Shown here: positions 1-6,761 of the stretch, piece after piece
How positions within the stretch are numbered: the stretch's first letter is position 1
Layout: each line of letters opens with the position of its first letter
From: a virus
Strand: one strand, 5' to 3'
Length of the DNA stretch: 48,635 nt
IMG/VR virus record: IMGVR_UViG_3300025132_000060
Coordinates: 1 to 48,635 of that record
Notes under the pieces: generated by a model
Databases searched by the model: none
Told to the model about the DNA's origin: nothing
The model's input: only the letters and a program-made list of their open reading frames with translations
Made by a program: the position numbers and the translations under genes

Positions 1-3000
1 CGCCAACAAAAACATTGTCAATTCCCGTGGTGACTGACTTACCCGCAGAATCGCCAACCGCCGTATTGTAAGCATTTGTCGCTGTAGTGAAGTTTTGGCT
101 TTCAAGCGCCGAACTTCCTATGGCTACAGAGAATTTTCCAGCCACATCTGTCGTAAGAGAAGATCTACCAACCGCAACATTATCCACCCCAATAGTCAAA
201 GCATCACCCGTATTGCCGCCTATGAGGGTGTTGAGGGTTCCCGAAGTTAGCGCAGCCCCAGCACTGTCTCCAACTACAGTGTTCAAATCTCCTGTCAAAG
301 CGGCCATGCCTGTGCCTTGACCGATTAAGATGTTTTGAGATCCTGTGGTTACTCCACCACCACCATTTGCTCCGATGGCTATGTTGTAAGATCCAGTTGT
401 GATTGCGTCACCAGCTAGGCCACCCAAAATGGTGTTCTGGACTCCCGTGGTGATGTCGTTACCCGCATGATAGCCAACGGCGACATTGTAGCCATTAGTT
501 GCTGTGGTGAAATTTTGAGTGAATAAAGCTCCAGCGCCGATAGCTACTGACCTGCTTCCTAAAGTATCTGAAGTTAACGAAGAAATACCTACTGCCACGT
601 TCTCATCAGCATCAGTCAAGGCGTCACCTGCAAGACCTCCAATGAGAGTGTTCTGAACTCCCGTGGTGACTGAACTACCTGCGGCAAAGCCTAGTGCGCT
701 ATTGTAAGAATTAGTAGCTGTAGTGAAATTTTGAGATTCTAAAGCACTTACGCCTACAGCTGTTGAACGACTGCCTAAAGTATCTGCACCTAATGCCGCT
801 ACCCCCACCGCCACATTAAAATCAGAATCTGTTAGGGCATCCCCAGCGTTACCGCCGATTAAGGTGTTACTTTGCCCCGTGGTGACTGACGCACCTGCGG
901 CGTAACCTATGCCAACATTGTAGCTGTCTGTGCTGGTAGTAAAGTTTTGTGCAGTTAGCGCACCGCGCCCAATTGCTACATTCCTATCGCCCAAGGTATC
1001 TGAAGATAATGTTGAATATCCAACCGCAACATTAGAATTACCACTTGTAAGCGCATCTCCCGATAAACCGCCAATAAGAGTATTCGTTGCCCCCGTGGTG
1101 ACTGATGCACCTGCGTTAGAACCTACCGCCACGTTATAAACATCAGTAGCTGTAGTAAAGTTTTGAACTTTGAGAGCGTTTCTACCGACAGCTACAGAAT
1201 GGCTACCCAACGTATCAGCAGACAAAGCGATGTACCCCATCGCAGTATTAGCATCGCCAGACGTAAGTGCATCTCCTGCTAACGCTCCAATAAGAGTGGT
1301 CTGAATTCCCGTAGTTACTGATAAACCAGCTTGATATCCAACCGCTGTATTAAAAGCGTCACTCCCAGCGTTGAGTGTCTTGAGAGATTGATAACCAACA
1401 GCTACGTTGTCGCCATGAGCATCTTCAGTAGATAGAGCCTCAAAACCTACCGCAGTGTTGCCATCACCCGTAGTCAAAGCCGTACCCGCTTCATCGCCCA
1501 CTAGCACGTTGTAGTTGCCGCCAGAGGTGATGCTGTTACCTGCGTTGACACCTGCGCGGAAGTTGGAGGTGCCAGAGGTTGATGAGACTAGATCGCCTGA
1601 GTAAGTGACCGAGTTGTTAAAACTAGCCGCACCATCTGATCTCGCAAGCCTCAAAACTTCCGTATCAGTACCCGAAACTTCACGTTTAATGACCAAATCG
1701 CCATTTGTAGAACTGTCAAAAAACTTAAAGCCGAAAGAGTTGTTTGGACCAATTTTTAATGCAGGTACGGAGTCTGAGTTACCGACAATATCCAAAACGG
1801 CTTCTGGGGCCGTTATGCCGACGCCCACGTTATTTGATGAATCAAGCACAATGCCGACGCCTGTGCCACCACCCGCCGCTATGCCAAGAAAATCTCCTGA
1901 TCCTGCACGCAGTTGAACCCCAACATCACCAGTTGCGGCACTATCCTCCAACTTGATGTCTAAGGTTCTACTGCCTTTTGCTAAACTTAGGTTGCCGCCA
2001 AACGTAGCTCCAGCGTTGAACGCAGCCGCACCCGCATCTGACATATCAAGGGTTAGGGCTGTTATTCCAGAGCCACCATCAACACCTTGAAAAATTAAGT
2101 CTTGGTTGTTGATAATTGATTTAACAACAAAATCTGAGCTTGAGTTTTTCAGTTGTCCAAACTGAGTACCCCCATCCAGAAGGTTTATATCGCCCCCGTC
2201 CGCATCAAGGATGATGTTACCCGCTACATCCAGTGTGAGGTTTCCAGAAGACAGATCAATCTCTGTGCCATCAATCGTGATGTTGTCTATGGAGATACCA
2301 GCATCAGCTGTAACCGCTCCGGTCACACCCAGAGTGCCACCCAAGGTAGCGTTACCGCTGACATCAATGGTTCCGTTTACATCAATAGCGGTAGCAGTCA
2401 GATCAATTTCATCAGTTGCACCGAGCGACAAAACCGTAGCACTTGAGCCTTGAATGAACTGGCTCGCGTCATTGAACATCAACTTGTTGGTGCTGTTCAG
2501 CGTTAAACCAGATCCATCTGTGTGCGTGAGCGTAGTGTCGCCATCTGCACCGAAGGTGATGACTGCGCTGTCAGAAGAAAACACAAGGTCATCGCCGATT
2601 GTCAGGTCATCGTCAATGAACAGATCAGGAATAGACAGGTCTTGAAAGGCATCAACCATCGCACCGCCACTTCCCGCCCCATCCGAATAGATGGCTTTGG
2701 TCTGGCCATTGGGGATGGTGATATTCGCTCCCGAACCTTGGCTAACGATTATACTCTGTGAGCCGCTTGTTGCATTTTCTATAAGCCAGAGCTTGCTGAC
2801 CGTATTCGGGCCAATAGTAATCGTACAGGTTGAATCTAAAGTGCCAGTGTACTTGAGGAAAATACTGCGCCCAGCGTCAGTAGAACCATCAGCAATAGTA
2901 GTAGTGTGCGTGTCTGCATTTGTGGTAATTGCCTCTGTGCCAAAAGAAAATGCTTCAGCAATCAACTCAAGGTTTGTGTTAGTGGTTGTGCCCCACGTTC

Positions 3001-3058
3001 CTGAGCCTTCCCCGGTGGCGAGTTCTGTGAGCCTCAGATCGTTTACGAATGTTGCCAT
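1..3058 (-). CDS. Tail fibre / adhesin with YadA-head-like repeats (3' end missing)
   Basis: The gene starts at 3058 after a GAGGAAG ribosome binding site and stays open to base 1, giving at least 1019 codons; the C-terminus lies outside the window. The N-terminal 140 residues look like the virion-attachment head of marine phage fibres (start MATFVNDLRLTELATGEGSG). A Gly/Asp/Thr-rich beta region follows. From about base 1500 to the left edge the protein is made of repeats with elements such as NTLIGGLAGDALT, NVAVGYSTL and YNVAVG, resembling the left-handed beta-roll of YadA/Hep_Hag heads. The DNA word CCCGTGGTGA or a close variant recurs at 444, 660, 876, 1092 and 1308, so these repeats are exactly 216 nt (72 codons). 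Likely role: trimeric receptor-binding fibre. The exact receptor and any C-terminal trimerisation or S74 domain are not visible. Confidence 0.85.
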   Translation of the reverse strand, partial: MATFVNDLRLTELATGEGSGTWGTTTNTNLELIAEAFSFGTEAITTNADTHTTTIADGSTDAGRSIFLKYTGTLDSTCTITIGPNTVSKLWLIENATSGSQSIIVSQGSGANITIPNGQTKAIYSDGAGSGGAMVDAFQDLSIPDLFIDDDLTIGDDLVFSSDSAVITFGADGDTTLTHTDGSGLTLNSTNKLMFNDASQFIQGSSATVLSLGATDEIDLTATAIDVNGTIDVSGNATLGGTLGVTGAVTADAGISIDNITIDGTEIDLSSGNLTLDVAGNIILDADGGDINLLDGGTQFGQLKNSSSDFVVKSIINNQDLIFQGVDGGSGITALTLDMSDAGAAAFNAGATFGGNLSLAKGSRTLDIKLEDSAATGDVGVQLRAGSGDFLGIAAGGGTGVGIVLDSSNNVGVGITAPEAVLDIVGNSDSVPALKIGPNNSFGFKFFDSSTNGDLVIKREVSGTDTEVLRLARSDGAASFNNSVTYSGDLVSSTSGTSNFRAGVNAGNSITSGGNYNVLVGDEAGTALTTGDGNTAVGFEALSTEDAHGDNVAVGYQSLKTLNAGSDAFNTAVGYQAGLSVTTGIQTTLIGALAGDALTSGDANTAMGYIALSADTLGSHSVAVGRNALKVQNFTTATDVYNVAVGSNAGASVTTGATNTLIGGLSGDALTSGNSNVAVGYSTLSSDTLGDRNVAIGRGALTAQNFTTSTDSYNVGIGYAAGASVTTGQSNTLIGGNAGDALTDSDFNVAVGVAALGADTLGSRSTAVGVSALESQNFTTATNSYNSALGFAAGSSVTTGVQNTLIGGLAGDALTDADENVAVGISSLTSDTLGSRSVAIGAGALFTQNFTTATNGYNVAVGYHAGNDITTGVQNTILGGLAGDAITTGSYNIAIGANGGGGVTTGSQNILIGQGTGMAALTGDLNTVVGDSAGAALTSGTLNTLIGGNTGDALTIGVDNVAVGRSSLTTDVAGKFSVAIGSSALESQNFTTATNAYNTAVGDSAGKSVTTGIDNVFVG

Positions 3059-3073
3059 GTTGCTTCCTCGACG

Positions 3074-3979
3074 CTATGCCGCTTCAATATCTGTATACCC
3101 CGGCGTCTGACTTGTGCTGATGGTCGAGAAACCGGGTGTCTGACTGTCATCGACGTTACTATAGTTTGGAGTCTGGGATGTGTCTATCTCTGCCCAGACA
3201 AGAACATCCGCCAAGGCAGAGGTAATTTGCTGACCTGTGACCTGAACAATCGACCCTGCGACAGTAGTCGGCGACCCAACGCCAGACGTAATCCCTTGCC
3301 CGTCTGCCGTCACACTGCCGGCAGCGTTGACCGTCAAAGCGCCTACGGCAGAGGTCGCTCCCTGACCTGTAACCGAGACATTTGCAGCGGCGGCAGTGGT
3401 GGGTGACCCAACTCCAGCGGACACGCCACTGATAACGGGCACGTCGATGATCGCTGCAGCGACAATCTGTATGCTGCCGACGCCGGCAGTTGCCCCTTGA
3501 CCAGTGGGTGTGATGTTTGCCTTCGCAACAACGGTGGACGCGCCCACGCCGGCAGTAATCGCCTGACCCGTTGGACTGACGTTTGCTTTCGCTTGAGTGG
3601 TGACAGCGCCGACTGCACTGGTGGCCCCTTGACCTGTGGGACTGACATTCGCAGCAGCGGTCGTTGTGGGTGCGCCGACTCCAGCGGTAGCGGCCTGACC
3701 CGTAGGCGTGACGTTCGCCTTGCCGGTTACCGTCAACGCAGTGCTCAGACCAGACGTGATCGCAAGCCCAGTGACAGTGACGGTCGCTCCTGCGGCTACT
3801 GTCGGTGCGCCTACTCCAGCAGTGGCCGCTTGACCTGTGGGGGTAAAATTAGCTTTGCCCGTAACAGAAAGAGAGCCAACGCCAGAGCTGGCCGCTTGAC
3901 CAGTAGGCTCGACGGGCAGGACTTCGTTCCAAGCGCCTTCGCCCCAAGTGCCTCTGCCCCATCCGTTAATATTTGCCAT
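3074..3979 (-). CDS. Repeat-rich virion/tail protein with PTGQ modules
   Basis: This 301-residue protein starts MANINGWGRGTWGEGAWNEV and then carries about ten units of roughly 22 residues built around PTGQ-(A/G)-A-T-(A/S)-G-V-G. It ends in three short SQTPxY(S/T) repeats. It is Gly/Ala/Thr/Val-rich, has no membrane segment and is probably an extended beta structure. It sits 15 nt upstream of the tail-fibre gene in the same direction, so the two are probably cotranscribed. One identical module ends the small tail protein at 28625-28936, which supports a tail-tip or fibre-associated role. No enzymatic motif is seen. Function beyond virion decoration is inference. Confidence 0.75.
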   Translation of the reverse strand: MANINGWGRGTWGEGAWNEVLPVEPTGQAASSGVGSLSVTGKANFTPTGQAATAGVGAPTVAAGATVTVTGLAITSGLSTALTVTGKANVTPTGQAATAGVGAPTTTAAANVSPTGQGATSAVGAVTTQAKANVSPTGQAITAGVGASTVVAKANITPTGQGATAGVGSIQIVAAAIIDVPVISGVSAGVGSPTTAAAANVSVTGQGATSAVGALTVNAAGSVTADGQGITSGVGSPTTVAGSIVQVTGQQITSALADVLVWAEIDTSQTPNYSNVDDSQTPGFSTISTSQTPGYTDIEAA

Positions 3980-4067
3980 AGCGACCTACTGGTTATGACT
4001 CTTGTCTTGCTGCTGCTTTACCCATTCCGCGTGTTCTTTTTCACTTTGAACGGGCTGCTGAGCCTGC

Positions 4068-4211
4068 TTAGCCACCGAGTTCCGTTTCTGCTTCTTTGAG
4101 CATAGCCACGCTTCGGGTCATGATCTCTCGCACGCTATCGGTCAGAAAATCAGTGGCCAACGAAGCCTCAAGCACGCGGATCGTTTCTTGTATGTTTTCA
4201 ATCGCTGTCAT
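4068..4211 (-). CDS. Small unknown protein (47 aa)
   Basis: An ATG at 4211 is preceded by GGAGGCCAAC, the same leader used by the recombinase gene at 5034, and the frame ends with TAA at 4068-4070. The product (MTAIENIQETIRVLEASLAT at the N-terminus) is predicted to be helical and mildly acidic, with no recognisable family. It lies between the serine recombinase and the tail-protein genes in the same direction. The shared leader is the main evidence that it is translated. About 88 nt between its stop and the next gene hold no convincing gene. Confidence 0.55.
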   Translation of the reverse strand: MTAIENIQETIRVLEASLATDFLTDSVREIMTRSVAMLKEAETELGG

Positions 4212-4245
4212 GTTGGCCTCCTAATGGAAGCCTTCATGATAATAA

Positions 4246-5034
4246 TTAAGCCGCGTCAGGGATACCCTGAACTTTACGCGCTAAAATCTTTTGAATCTTA
4301 TGGTACTTCAGCTCCACACCGTGAAAAGAGTGCAGCTCGCTGGCGATGGCTTTTGCACGTTTGCCTCGATCTGCGAGTGCATAAATAATTTTGAGAACCT
4401 TCTGTTCCTCTTCAATCGGCACGAGCTTCTTGCGCGTTTTGTTCCCGTGCTGCTCCTCTTCGACTTTGTAGCCATAGGGAGGAGTGCCGCCGATAAAGTA
4501 ACCGCGACCAGCCCAATCGATCTTGCCCTCTGCAAAACGGTCCTTGATGGTCGCGTGCTCAATCTCTGCGACCGCTGACAAAACCATCAGCATGATCTTA
4601 TTGGCCATGTCATTCATGTCGAAACGGTTTCGCAGACCCTTGCCATCTTTGGCCTTGGGGTAACAAATCGGCACATCACCAAACTGCTCACAGAAGAAAA
4701 GCGTTACGCCGGCATCTTCGAGGTGAGGGATCGTGTTAAGAAGATCGTTGGCGGTACGAGACAGTCGGTCCAGTCGGGTGCAGATCACCACGTCATATTC
4801 ATCGATGGCGTCAGTCAATTCTTTGGAGCCGGTTCGTTCTAATATCGGGCGGGTGCCGCTCACACCGTCATCAATAAAGAACTCGTCAACCTCGCGGTTG
4901 TACTTCTCCTGCACAAACGAACTGATCGCATCCTGCTGCTGGCGGAGCGAAACCCCTGATCTAACTTGTTCTTGCGTAGACACGCGAACATACCCGTAGA
5001 TGTTCCTGATTTGCTTTACTGGTCTAATTGTCAT
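4246..5034 (-). CDS. Serine recombinase (resolvase/invertase family)
   Basis: This 262-residue protein belongs to the serine recombinases, which cut and rejoin DNA through a phosphoserine link. The catalytic domain starts at YGYVRVST with the nucleophile at Ser19, and the active-site helix RLDRLSR is at about 87-93. A motif of the large-recombinase second domain (GRGYFIGGTPPYGYK) is at about 177-190, followed by a short C-terminal DNA-binding segment. It is much shorter than a large serine integrase (450 or more residues) and lacks the zinc ribbon. The ATG at 5034 was preferred to an upstream start because it has a strong GGAGG site. It could be a phage integrase-like enzyme, a resolvase, or an invertase acting on nearby tail-fibre DNA; no att or inverted site was identified. 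Confidence 0.9.
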   Translation of the reverse strand: MTIRPVKQIRNIYGYVRVSTQEQVRSGVSLRQQQDAISSFVQEKYNREVDEFFIDDGVSGTRPILERTGSKELTDAIDEYDVVICTRLDRLSRTANDLLNTIPHLEDAGVTLFFCEQFGDVPICYPKAKDGKGLRNRFDMNDMANKIMLMVLSAVAEIEHATIKDRFAEGKIDWAGRGYFIGGTPPYGYKVEEEQHGNKTRKKLVPIEEEQKVLKIIYALADRGKRAKAIASELHSFHGVELKYHKIQKILARKVQGIPDAA

Positions 5035-5088
5035 GTTGGCCTCCGTTAAAAACTTGATTGTACGGCATACACAACTGTTTAACAATAG

Positions 5089-5116
5089 TTGCAATCATCT
5101 GTACATCTGTTATACT
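5089..5116 (+). promoter_or_regulatory. Sigma70-like promoter of the accessory/tas operon
   Basis: TTGCAA (5089-5094), a 16-nt spacer and TATACT (5111-5116) lie 31 nt before the first ATG of the rightward operon and diverge from the recombinase gene. A short inverted pair CAACT/AGTTG (about 5072-5091) overlaps the -35 region and could be an operator. No other comparable promoter was noticed between here and 8282, so it may drive tas and the array together. Assigned from consensus match only. Confidence 0.55.
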
Positions 5117-5147
5117 AGTCGCACGTTTCAACAAAAAGGAGAACGTG

Positions 5148-5351
5148 ATGAGAGATGTATCGCAAATCAAAAACCCAACAACGCGCAAGGTCAAGAACCG
5201 AGGCTTTACGCCTATCGCGTATCATAACGGTGACGGTGTTTACAACGGCTGGATCTACAAAGAGACGCCCAAGTTCACCTTCGCCCGATTCCCCGGCCTT
5301 GGCCGCAAGAAGCTAGAAAAGTCTGAGCTTCGTTATGTGAGGTACTTGTAA
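5148..5351 (+). CDS. Small basic unknown protein (67 aa)
   Basis: The start at 5148 is chosen because AAGGAGAA lies just upstream; an upstream in-frame start at 5058 would overlap the promoter. The product is rich in Lys/Arg (for example KNPTTRKVKNRG, GLGRKKLEKSELRYVRYL) with no known domain, possibly nucleic-acid binding. Its stop overlaps the start of the metallopeptidase gene (TAATG), so it is the first gene of the rightward operon that carries tas and the guide array. Function unknown. Confidence 0.7.
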   Translation: MRDVSQIKNPTTRKVKNRGFTPIAYHNGDGVYNGWIYKETPKFTFARFPGLGRKKLEKSELRYVRYL

Positions 5352-5881
5352 TGACCATACGTTCCAAGCGTGGCCCCAACGTCAAACCCGACGAGCACAA
5401 GCTCGTCGTGAAGTTTGCTAAACAATGCCTGCGGGAAATCTGTAAGAAGCAGCACGAGATCGAGTATCGCGGCAAGCCTGTCGTGTACGCTGAAGCTCTG
5501 AAGCGACTGCACGTCCGCACCAAGTATCGCAGCCAACGTTGTTACGGCAGCGCGAGCGGTATCGATATCGATGTGCGGTATCTGAGAAAACCTAAGCGCA
5601 TTGGCATCAGTCGCCCAGAGCCTTGGTACCTCCTGCACGAATACGACTCGTTTGCAAACGATCCGGTCATTGGCGAGTTCGAGACGACCGACAAAGAGCT
5701 GGTCTTGCTCGCGGTCGTAGCGCACGAGGTTGCGCACCATATTCAAATGTTGTACGGGCCGCAAACTCGATACCTCAAAAAGACCTACCGCAAAGCACAT
5801 GGCGATGCGTTCAAAACAATATATCGTGAGCTACGGCGCACGCTAGTCAATCCCTATATCCAAAACCAACAAGCCGCGTAA
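5351..5881 (+). CDS. SprT-like zinc metallopeptidase domain protein
   Basis: This 176-residue protein carries a zinc-binding HEXXH motif (AVVAHEVAHHIQ, residues about 121-132) and a plausible third ligand in RKAHGDAF (His150). That layout fits SprT-like or minigluzincin-type metallopeptidases. The N-terminal half is basic and may bind nucleic acid. Translation is coupled to the previous gene through TAATG, and the tas-like gene starts 13 nt after its stop. The substrate is unknown. The tight spacing to the Nop-domain gene makes it a candidate partner or simply an operon neighbour; the sequence alone cannot decide. Confidence 0.75.
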   Translation: MTIRSKRGPNVKPDEHKLVVKFAKQCLREICKKQHEIEYRGKPVVYAEALKRLHVRTKYRSQRCYGSASGIDIDVRYLRKPKRIGISRPEPWYLLHEYDSFANDPVIGEFETTDKELVLLAVVAHEVAHHIQMLYGPQTRYLKKTYRKAHGDAFKTIYRELRRTLVNPYIQNQQAA

Positions 5882-5894
5882 GCGGCAAGGAGAA

Positions 5895-6761
5895 ATGATG
5901 AGCAATTCACAACAACAAATGTTAAAGGCAGCGGTCAACGGGTTCTATTCTATGCAGAAGACCCGCATCCGCGTGGGCAACAACATCGTTGCCAACTTCA
6001 AGATCAAAATCGGTCAGGAGCCGAGTCAGTCAGAGGACACGCTCGACGCCGACGCAAAACTCTTGTTAGCCAACCTGCGGGTGAGCTACAAGAAAATTAC
6101 CGATGGCGTTACCAGCATGACTCCCAGACGGTTCAAGCAGGACGGTCTGATCAGCGAGTACAGCGAGTTCTCTCTGGTGCAGCAGTACGTCGATCTGTAT
6201 GCGGCTGAAAAATCAGCGTTCAGACAAATCGAATATTCGATAAATAACTTTCCGATTTACCGCACGTTCTTGGAAGGCGTGACTGGGGTAGGGCCGACCA
6301 TGGCCGCGGTCATTATCTCAGGCTTTGATATTCACAAAGCGGAGTATCCAAGCTCACTGCACAAATATGCAGGACTCGATGTGGTCAGCGGTAAAGGTCG
6401 GTCGCGGGTCAAAGAGCATCTGGTGGACTCGACGTATATCGATGCGGACGGAAACGAACAAACCAAGAAAGGTATTTCGTTCAACCCGTTTCTGAAAACC
6501 AAACTAATCGGCGTGTTGGGATCGTCCTTTGTCAAAACCAAAGGGCCATACCGCGACATATACGACAACTATAAGCACCGCATCACGCACATGCCGGCAC
6601 ACTCTGAAAAGAGCAAGGCGCACCTTAATAACATGGCAATCCGCTACACCGTCAAACGATTCCTAACGGATTTGTATGTCGCATGGCGTAAGCTTGAAGG
6701 GTTGCCGGTTGCTGACGAATACTCCAAGGGTAAGCTTGGGATCAATCACAAGGTTGCTTGA
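5895..6761 (+). CDS. tasA-like: TasA-like Nop/IS110-C-terminal-domain protein, nuclease-less
   Basis: This 288-residue protein has the C-terminal fold shared by IS110-family transposases (Transposase_20) and Tas/Nop guide-RNA-binding proteins. It shows a helix-hairpin-helix FLEGVTGVGPTMAAVIISG at about 125-143, the conserved HKYAGLD at about 156-162, and a basic helical C-terminus with AIRYTVKRFLTDLYVAW at about 248-264. The N-terminal region is charged and helical and lacks the DEDD/RuvC motifs of IS110 transposases; no HNH motif is seen. By itself it would be annotated as a transposase. The 36-nt dual-repeat array that starts inside its stop codon indicates a TIGR-associated (Tas) protein instead, of the nuclease-free TasA type. 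The expected role is binding tigRNAs and RNA-guided DNA binding without cutting. AAGGAG precedes two adjacent ATGs (5895 and 5898); either could be used. Confidence 0.9.
   Translation: MMSNSQQQMLKAAVNGFYSMQKTRIRVGNNIVANFKIKIGQEPSQSEDTLDADAKLLLANLRVSYKKITDGVTSMTPRRFKQDGLISEYSEFSLVQQYVDLYAAEKSAFRQIEYSINNFPIYRTFLEGVTGVGPTMAAVIISGFDIHKAEYPSSLHKYAGLDVVSGKGRSRVKEHLVDSTYIDADGNEQTKKGISFNPFLKTKLIGVLGSSFVKTKGPYRDIYDNYKHRITHMPAHSEKSKAHLNNMAIRYTVKRFLTDLYVAWRKLEGLPVADEYSKGKLGINHKVA

What the first reader, a model, noticed from the sequence alone, without database searches (positions are those of the whole stretch)
5895..6761. IS110-like C-terminal domain without the DEDD nuclease: not a transposase
The GVTGVGPTMAAVIIS helix-hairpin-helix and HKYAGLD motif would give a routine transposase label. 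The N-terminal 120 residues have no DEDD/RuvC signature and no inverted ends are seen around the gene. A binding-only RNA-guided protein is the better reading, and it raises the question of what binding alone does in a phage.
Basis: partly seen in the sequence, partly recalled or inferred. Interest (0 to 1): 0.85.

Follow-up and report, generated by a model that had tools for sequence, protein, structure and literature searches.

The report
TIGR-TasA cassette in marine phage
The gene is not a transposase: it is a small RNA-guided DNA-binding protein (TasA) of the recently described TIGR-Tas systems, sitting directly in front of a 27-unit array of guide RNAs in a marine phage. It is a known kind of system whose purpose in phages nobody has yet shown.

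Summary
The 288-aa protein (5895-6761, +) scores above the curated cut-off of NCBIfam's TIGR-Tas model (115.4 vs 100 bits) and far below the IS110 model (12.4 vs 140). Its AlphaFold model aligns best to TasH and TasR structures (Z 18-21), starting just after their HNH or RuvC domains.

Directly downstream, from the tasA stop codon, lies a textbook dual-repeat TIGR array: 27 units of 36 nt (edge AGCGAGCCA, 9-nt spacer A, loop AGAAAACCA, 9-nt spacer B). This is TIGR-TasA (Faure et al. 2025).

Additions: 44 IMG/VR relatives, nearly all with arrays; strong purifying selection on tasA; gene and array form an accessory cassette, replaced by a small ORF in siblings; units shared, in different orders, among phages with otherwise unrelated flanks. 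No spacer pair of 565 has a perfect target in 2.9 Mb of phage-family DNA; none of the window's 27 has a self-target with two or fewer mismatches.

Best reading: RNA-guided binding without cleavage of host or rival-element DNA. Biochemistry is inferred from relatives; the target is unknown. New member of a known kind.

The parts
5895..6761 (+). tasA: solo Nop-domain protein, 288 aa, no nuclease domain
   Evidence: NCBIfam NF052498 115.4 bits, cut-off 100; PDB TasR 9mty 5.7e-10 and TasH 21kl 9.7e-6 by phmmer, 2.2e-20 and 2e-13 by profile; fold match to TasH/TasR, Z 18-21; dN/dS about 0.06-0.07
6757..7738 (+). TIGR array: 27 units of 36 nt (edge AGCGAGCCA, spacer A 9 nt, loop AGAAAACCA, spacer B 9 nt); first edge (CTTGAGCCA) overlaps the tasA stop codon; ends in a partial edge at the start of the next ORF
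   Evidence: column conservation (18 repeat columns 21-27 of 27, spacer columns at most 15 of 27); same layout beside relatives
5868..5894 (+). boundary of the accessory slot: end of the SprT-like gene and Shine-Dalgarno (AACAAGCCGCGTAAGCGGCAAGGAGAA), identical in sibling L212, where a different small ORF follows
5351..5881 (+). upstream gene, SprT-like/zinc metallopeptidase-like (HEVAHHIQ motif, weak profile match); neighbour, not conserved with tasA (not detected in L026 or other relatives)
   Evidence: Pfam SprT-like 19.4 bits, cut-off 25.6
7737..7961 (+). downstream small gene (MDNREYETERLKK...), kept in L026, L047 and in siblings without tasA; right edge of the slot
4246..5034 (-). serine recombinase (resolvase N-terminal domain), divergent neighbour; present in siblings without tasA, so not a dedicated partner
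   Evidence: Pfam Resolvase 8.4e-27

Best explanation
5895-7738 is a TIGR-TasA system carried as an accessory cassette by a marine tailed phage. SHOWN by sequence: a solo Nop-domain Tas protein without nuclease; a 27-unit dual-repeat guide array starting at its stop codon; purifying selection on the protein; units shared and reordered between phages; a slot that holds other small genes in siblings. INFERRED from TasR, TasH and FpTasA (PMC12045711): the array is transcribed on the + strand and cut within the edge repeats into 36-nt tigRNAs; a TasA dimer holds one tigRNA by the symmetric AG...CCA (box D/box C) motifs; spacers A and B pair with opposite strands of an 18-bp target, which is unwound and bent but not cut. 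INFERRED, less certain: the bound complex blocks transcription or replication of DNA that is not the phage's own, either host genes that hinder infection or a competing element.
For: Family and fold. Array anatomy. Close association of tasA with 36-nt arrays in IMG/VR relatives and in most of 8 MAG contigs. Purifying selection on TasA. Accessory placement: synteny kept but tasA and array absent, other ORF in the slot, in L212/L214/L233/L239; also absent from L180, L191, L194, L198, L222. Fast turnover: window vs L047 have 94% identical primase but share only 5 exact and 2 near units of 27 and 24; vs L026 (89%) 6 exact and 3 near. Unit 18 (GAAGGACAT/TCCTTACAA) with its odd loop repeat recurs, with at most 2 spacer changes, in 10 loci including contigs that share little or no other detectable sequence with the window. 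This pattern fits guides against changing, outside targets. Two reasons it is probably not self-directed: none of the window's 27 pairs has a site with 2 or fewer mismatches in its own 48.6 kb, and the cassette is dispensable in the family.
Against: No target was found anywhere. Of 565 spacer pairs, none had a perfect A.rc(B) site in 2.9 Mb of TasA-bearing and same-family phage DNA, and one-mismatch counts equal the controls. Scans of 2.9 million viral contigs with four widely shared or window units gave 21, 2, 1 and 0 stretches, which collapse to a few unrelated sites, as chance would give. Host genomes could hardly be tested. Binding, processing and any effect on DNA are not shown for this protein. 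Some widely shared units may be kept for RNA structure rather than targets (in unit 18, spacer A AAGGA and spacer B TCCTT are complementary to each other).
Confidence: 0.65

Rival explanations
1. IS110-family transposase, intact or decayed, with the repeats as an unrelated tandem array.
For: Sub-threshold Transposase_20 match, the reason for routine transposase labels; PHROG 4285 is annotated 'transposase'; real structural kinship of the Nop part with IS621, Z 14.
Against: IS110 model 12.4 bits vs cut-off 140; no DEDD domain, structural alignment starts after it; no ends; strong purifying selection; an array beside the gene in nearly all relatives.
Confidence: 0.02
2. TasA regulates the phage's own genes: tigRNAs bind phage promoters or genes and time expression.
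For: Nuclease-free protein; operon-like placement in the early region, often near DNA-metabolism genes in relatives.
Against: Best self-match of any of the 27 pairs is 3 mismatches, same as shuffled pairings; 565 pairs show no excess in family DNA; no self-match for three MAG arrays on their own contigs; cassette absent from many siblings. The window may lack part of the genome.
Confidence: 0.1
3. TasA is an RNA-guided helper of DNA recombination: it bends target DNA for the adjacent serine recombinase, as suggested for phage integrases in PMC12045711.
For: A serine recombinase gene lies next to the operon in the window and L026.
Against: The recombinase is equally present in siblings without tasA; only 1 of 104 neighbouring proteins from 34 TasA loci matches Resolvase, and that one is from L026.
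Confidence: 0.07
4. TasA guides a separate effector (host or phage nuclease, helicase) to its target.
For: Helicase (ResIII/SNF2-type) and PD-(D/E)XK genes lie near some tasA loci.
Against: No partner is conserved: the commonest neighbour family occurs in 8 of 104 neighbour proteins, and neighbours differ between clades.
Confidence: 0.12
5. The guides act on RNA (snoRNP-like), not DNA.
For: Fold kinship with Nop5/Nop56 box C/D proteins, Z 7-8; spacers are purine-rich, 61-63% A+G.
Against: TasR does not cut RNA and both TasR and TasH act on DNA with opposite-strand pairing (PMC12045711). Same-strand A.B matches show no excess in phage DNA either.
Confidence: 0.06

Closest known systems
TIGR-TasA (FpTIGR of Flavonifractor plautii; Faure et al. 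2025, PMC12045711)
   Same: Solo Nop-domain protein beside a dual-repeat array with 18 nt of spacer (9+9) and 36-nt period; repeats end in CCA; found in phages.
   Different: Longer array (27 units against the usual 5-15); repeats begin with AG, not the UG of TasR arrays; array runs directly into the next gene.
TIGR-TasR (PDB 9mty) and TIGR-TasH (PDB 9w04, 21kl)
   Same: Same Nop domain and array logic; best matches by sequence and fold.
   Different: They carry an N-terminal RuvC or HNH nuclease and cut; this protein starts where those domains end.
IS110/IS621 bridge-RNA recombinases (PDB 8wt9)
   Same: Nop-type C-terminal part, Z about 14.
   Different: No DEDD domain, no element ends, guide array instead of one bridge RNA.
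Box C/D snoRNP Nop5/Nop56
   Same: Same fold of the RNA-binding part, Z 7-8; repeats with box C/D-like motifs.
   Different: No fibrillarin-binding domain; DNA-targeting relatives.
CRISPR arrays
   Same: Repeat-spacer array with rapid turnover of guides.
   Different: Two alternating 9-nt repeats, split 9-nt spacers, no Cas genes seen, no known spacer acquisition.

Membership tests
TIGR-TasA | Nop-domain Tas protein by family model | tested here: met
   NF052498 115.4 bits, cut-off 100, model positions 2-215 of 215; TasR/TasH best PDB matches
TIGR-TasA | No nuclease domain fused to Nop | tested here: met
   No RuvC/HNH/DEDD match; residue 1 aligns to TasH 62, residue 5 to TasR 111
TIGR-TasA | Adjacent array of two alternating 8-12-nt repeats with about 9-nt spacers | tested here: met
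   27 units, 9/9/9/9 nt
TIGR-TasA | Edge and loop repeats share box C/D-like ends | tested here: met
   AGCGAGCCA and AGAAAACCA, both AG...CCA; in a second clade the edge is AACGAGTCA
TIGR-TasA | Processing into 36-nt tigRNAs bound by the protein | not testable with these tools
   Only the 36-nt period is seen
TIGR-TasA | tigRNA-guided binding of duplex DNA | not testable with these tools
   No assay; computed target search found no target
IS110 family transposase | N-terminal DEDD catalytic domain | tested here: not met
IS110 family transposase | Element boundaries around the gene | tested here: not met
   No flanking inverted repeats. The cassette boundary lies at the ribosome-binding site
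CRISPR-Cas | Single repeat type with Cas proteins | tested here: not met
   Two alternating repeats; PADLOC models do not match the three proteins scanned, TasA and two upstream neighbours

The most novel reading that the evidence does not exclude
Marine phages with otherwise unrelated flanking genomes carry and exchange TasA guide cassettes whose units form a shared, fast-changing pool aimed at something other than their own genomes, such as a common host's defence genes or resident elements: a phage-borne, non-cutting, RNA-guided silencing system with CRISPR-like array turnover but no adaptation genes.
Probability: 0.3. Interest if true: 0.75.

Novelty: new member of a known kind. Interest (0 to 1): 0.42.

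Why it matters
The natural role of TasA and the source of TIGR spacers are stated open questions (PMC12045711). This phage family gives a workable comparison: same-backbone phages with and without the cassette, arrays that differ by known units, and a few units (above all unit 18 and unit 15) shared across otherwise unrelated loci. That makes target, host and unit exchange testable. It also flags that such genes are labelled 'transposase' in PHROGs (phrog_4285).

Tried and rejected
Spacer targets: A.rc(B), the arrangement I derived from the 8-nt 3' overhang and 'C-5' rule in PMC12045711, with gaps 0-2; also rc(A).B, A.B, B.A and reversed controls. No excess in 0.5, 1.4 or 2.9 Mb. The apparent exact hits come only from contigs that had been fetched with that very spacer (L050-L070) and collapse to a few unrelated sites. 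Self-avoidance by single spacers: window had 13 hits against 34 for reversed spacers, but against foreign spacers the difference vanished over all loci (110 observed vs 116 expected). Apparent 'chained' spacers (B of one unit = A of the next) in L009/L011/L016 were a half-period phase artefact. Integrase helper and conserved partner gene: not supported. Near-identical phage in INPHARED: none by megablast for 1-24000; TasA itself has only one distant match there. Rfam: no match in 4000-9000. No separate paper on TasA function turned up in three library searches.

Full report
WHAT IS THERE. Pfam gives only a sub-threshold Transposase_20 match and no DEDD, RuvC or HNH domain. NCBIfam places the protein above the curated cut-off of NF052498, TIGR-Tas RNA-guided endonuclease (115.4 vs 100 bits, full model length), and far below the IS110 cut-off. 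The word 'endonuclease' belongs to the model name and is not evidence of a nuclease here. By sequence the only PDB relatives at E<=1 are TasR (9mty) and TasH (21kl).

STRUCTURE. An AlphaFold2 model from 22 homologues has mean pLDDT 78.8 and pTM 0.74, with weak parts at 61-90, 161-180 and the C-terminus. Foldseek and VIA-align rank TasH and TasR first (Z 17.6-20.6), then IS110-type recombinases (Z about 14), then Nop5/Nop56/Prp31 (Z 7-8, which alone would be weak for a helical protein). Residue 1 of the model aligns at residue 62 of TasH, residue 5 at 111 of TasR, and residues 1-3 at 122-124 of IS110-type proteins. The nuclease domain is simply not there, and the N-terminal helices are the Nop coiled coil.

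THE ARRAY. From the tasA stop codon a 36-nt period runs for 27 units to about 7738: edge AGCGAGCCA, 9-nt spacer A, loop AGAAAACCA, 9-nt spacer B. All 18 repeat columns are conserved in 21-27 of 27 units; spacer columns reach at most 15 of 27. This matches the dual-repeat TIGR array of Faure et al. (PMC12045711), read. The finding's interval therefore holds half of a two-part system.

RELATIVES. A scan of IMG/VR with the protein found 44 loci, 50-98% identical in the best segment. Nearly all with enough downstream DNA carry a 36-nt array beside the gene. Eight MAG contigs encode relatives, and TIGR-type units were detected in seven of them. TasA is under purifying selection: dN/dS about 0.03/0.41 against L026 and 0.042/0.74 against L006. 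The window's own phage is a tailed phage whose terminase and capsid are nearest to phages 023Pt_psg01, DSL-LC04 and pelagiphages HTVC027P and HTVC023P, at 56-66% identity. Its host is unknown; 'marine' is inferred from these relatives and from my own knowledge of the sample series of the IMG/VR contigs.

A CASSETTE, NOT A CORE GENE. Only L026 and L047 share the phage backbone with the window. In L006-L025 the detectable DNA similarity is, with a few weak exceptions, tasA and array alone, beginning at or near the start of the gene. In siblings L212, L214, L233 and L239 the order recombinase, (small ORF), SprT-like gene, X, downstream small gene is kept, but X is a small ORF of about 75 aa and not tasA. 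The window and L212 are identical for 27 nt up to the Shine-Dalgarno just before the start codon of X. Several other siblings also lack tasA. The module is thus dispensable cargo in a variable slot, as accessory phage functions are.

GUIDE TURNOVER. Against L047 (primase 94% identical) the window's array shares 5 exact and 2 near units; against L026 (primase 89%), 6 exact and 3 near. Units also occur, in other positions, in loci with otherwise unrelated flanks: unit 15 in L006 and L010; unit 18, with its unusual loop repeat AGCAACCCG, in ten loci counting variants. Whole units therefore move between arrays. This is seen in sequence; how it happens is not.

TARGETS. I took the target to be A followed by rc(B) on one strand, which follows from the 8-nt 3' overhang and the C-5 rule in PMC12045711. 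None of the window's 27 pairs has a self-site with 2 or fewer mismatches, and the distribution equals shuffled pairings. None of 565 pairs has a perfect site in 2.9 Mb of TasA loci and same-family phage DNA, and one-mismatch counts (14 hits, 7 distinct pairs) match controls. Four units were scanned against all viral contigs; the hits collapse to a few unrelated sites, about what chance gives. Three MAG arrays show no self-site on their own contigs. Self-regulation through near-perfect sites is therefore unlikely for the DNA seen, and close sibling phages are not an obvious target. Host DNA remains largely untested.

MECHANISM. Shown: gene, array, absence of nuclease, selection, cassette nature, unit sharing. 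Inferred from FpTasA, TasR and TasH: 36-nt tigRNAs, dimer, opposite-strand pairing, unwinding and bending without cutting. Inferred with moderate confidence: a roadblock on DNA that is not the phage's own. Faure et al. propose the same range of roles and state that TasA function is less apparent, so this is a new member of a known kind with useful comparative material.

Noticed in passing
L049:10025-11221: This TasA relative is 399 aa, with extra stretches inside the conserved protein, one of about 70 residues containing DHIEPISGN, reminiscent of an HNH motif. Possibly an insertion worth a look.
   Followed up: no
window 7370-7405 (unit 18) and same unit in 9 other loci: Spacers A (GAAGGACAT) and B (TCCTTACAA) are complementary to each other (AAGGA/TCCTT) and the loop repeat is atypical. 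Its wide sharing could reflect an RNA hairpin in the array rather than a target.
   Followed up: partly
all arrays: The last base of both spacers is almost never C (2-4%, against about 15% overall) and is usually A or G, so position 9 next to the AG box seems not to be free.
   Followed up: partly
L016:1465-1760 (also L018, L019): The array is interrupted by a non-repeat stretch of about 300 nt holding a small ORF, then resumes in the same repeat pattern.
   Followed up: no
window 4206-4221 and 5029-5044: A perfect 16-nt direct repeat TGTCATGTTGGCCTCC around the serine recombinase gene; read on the minus strand it is a Shine-Dalgarno plus ATG, so probably a repeated start-site sequence, not an att site.
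   Followed up: partly
window 3074-3979 and 1-3100, minus strand: Tail-fibre-like protein made of repeats (VTGQAATSGVG...), which differs strongly between close relatives (54% vs 89% for the primase in L026).
   Followed up: no
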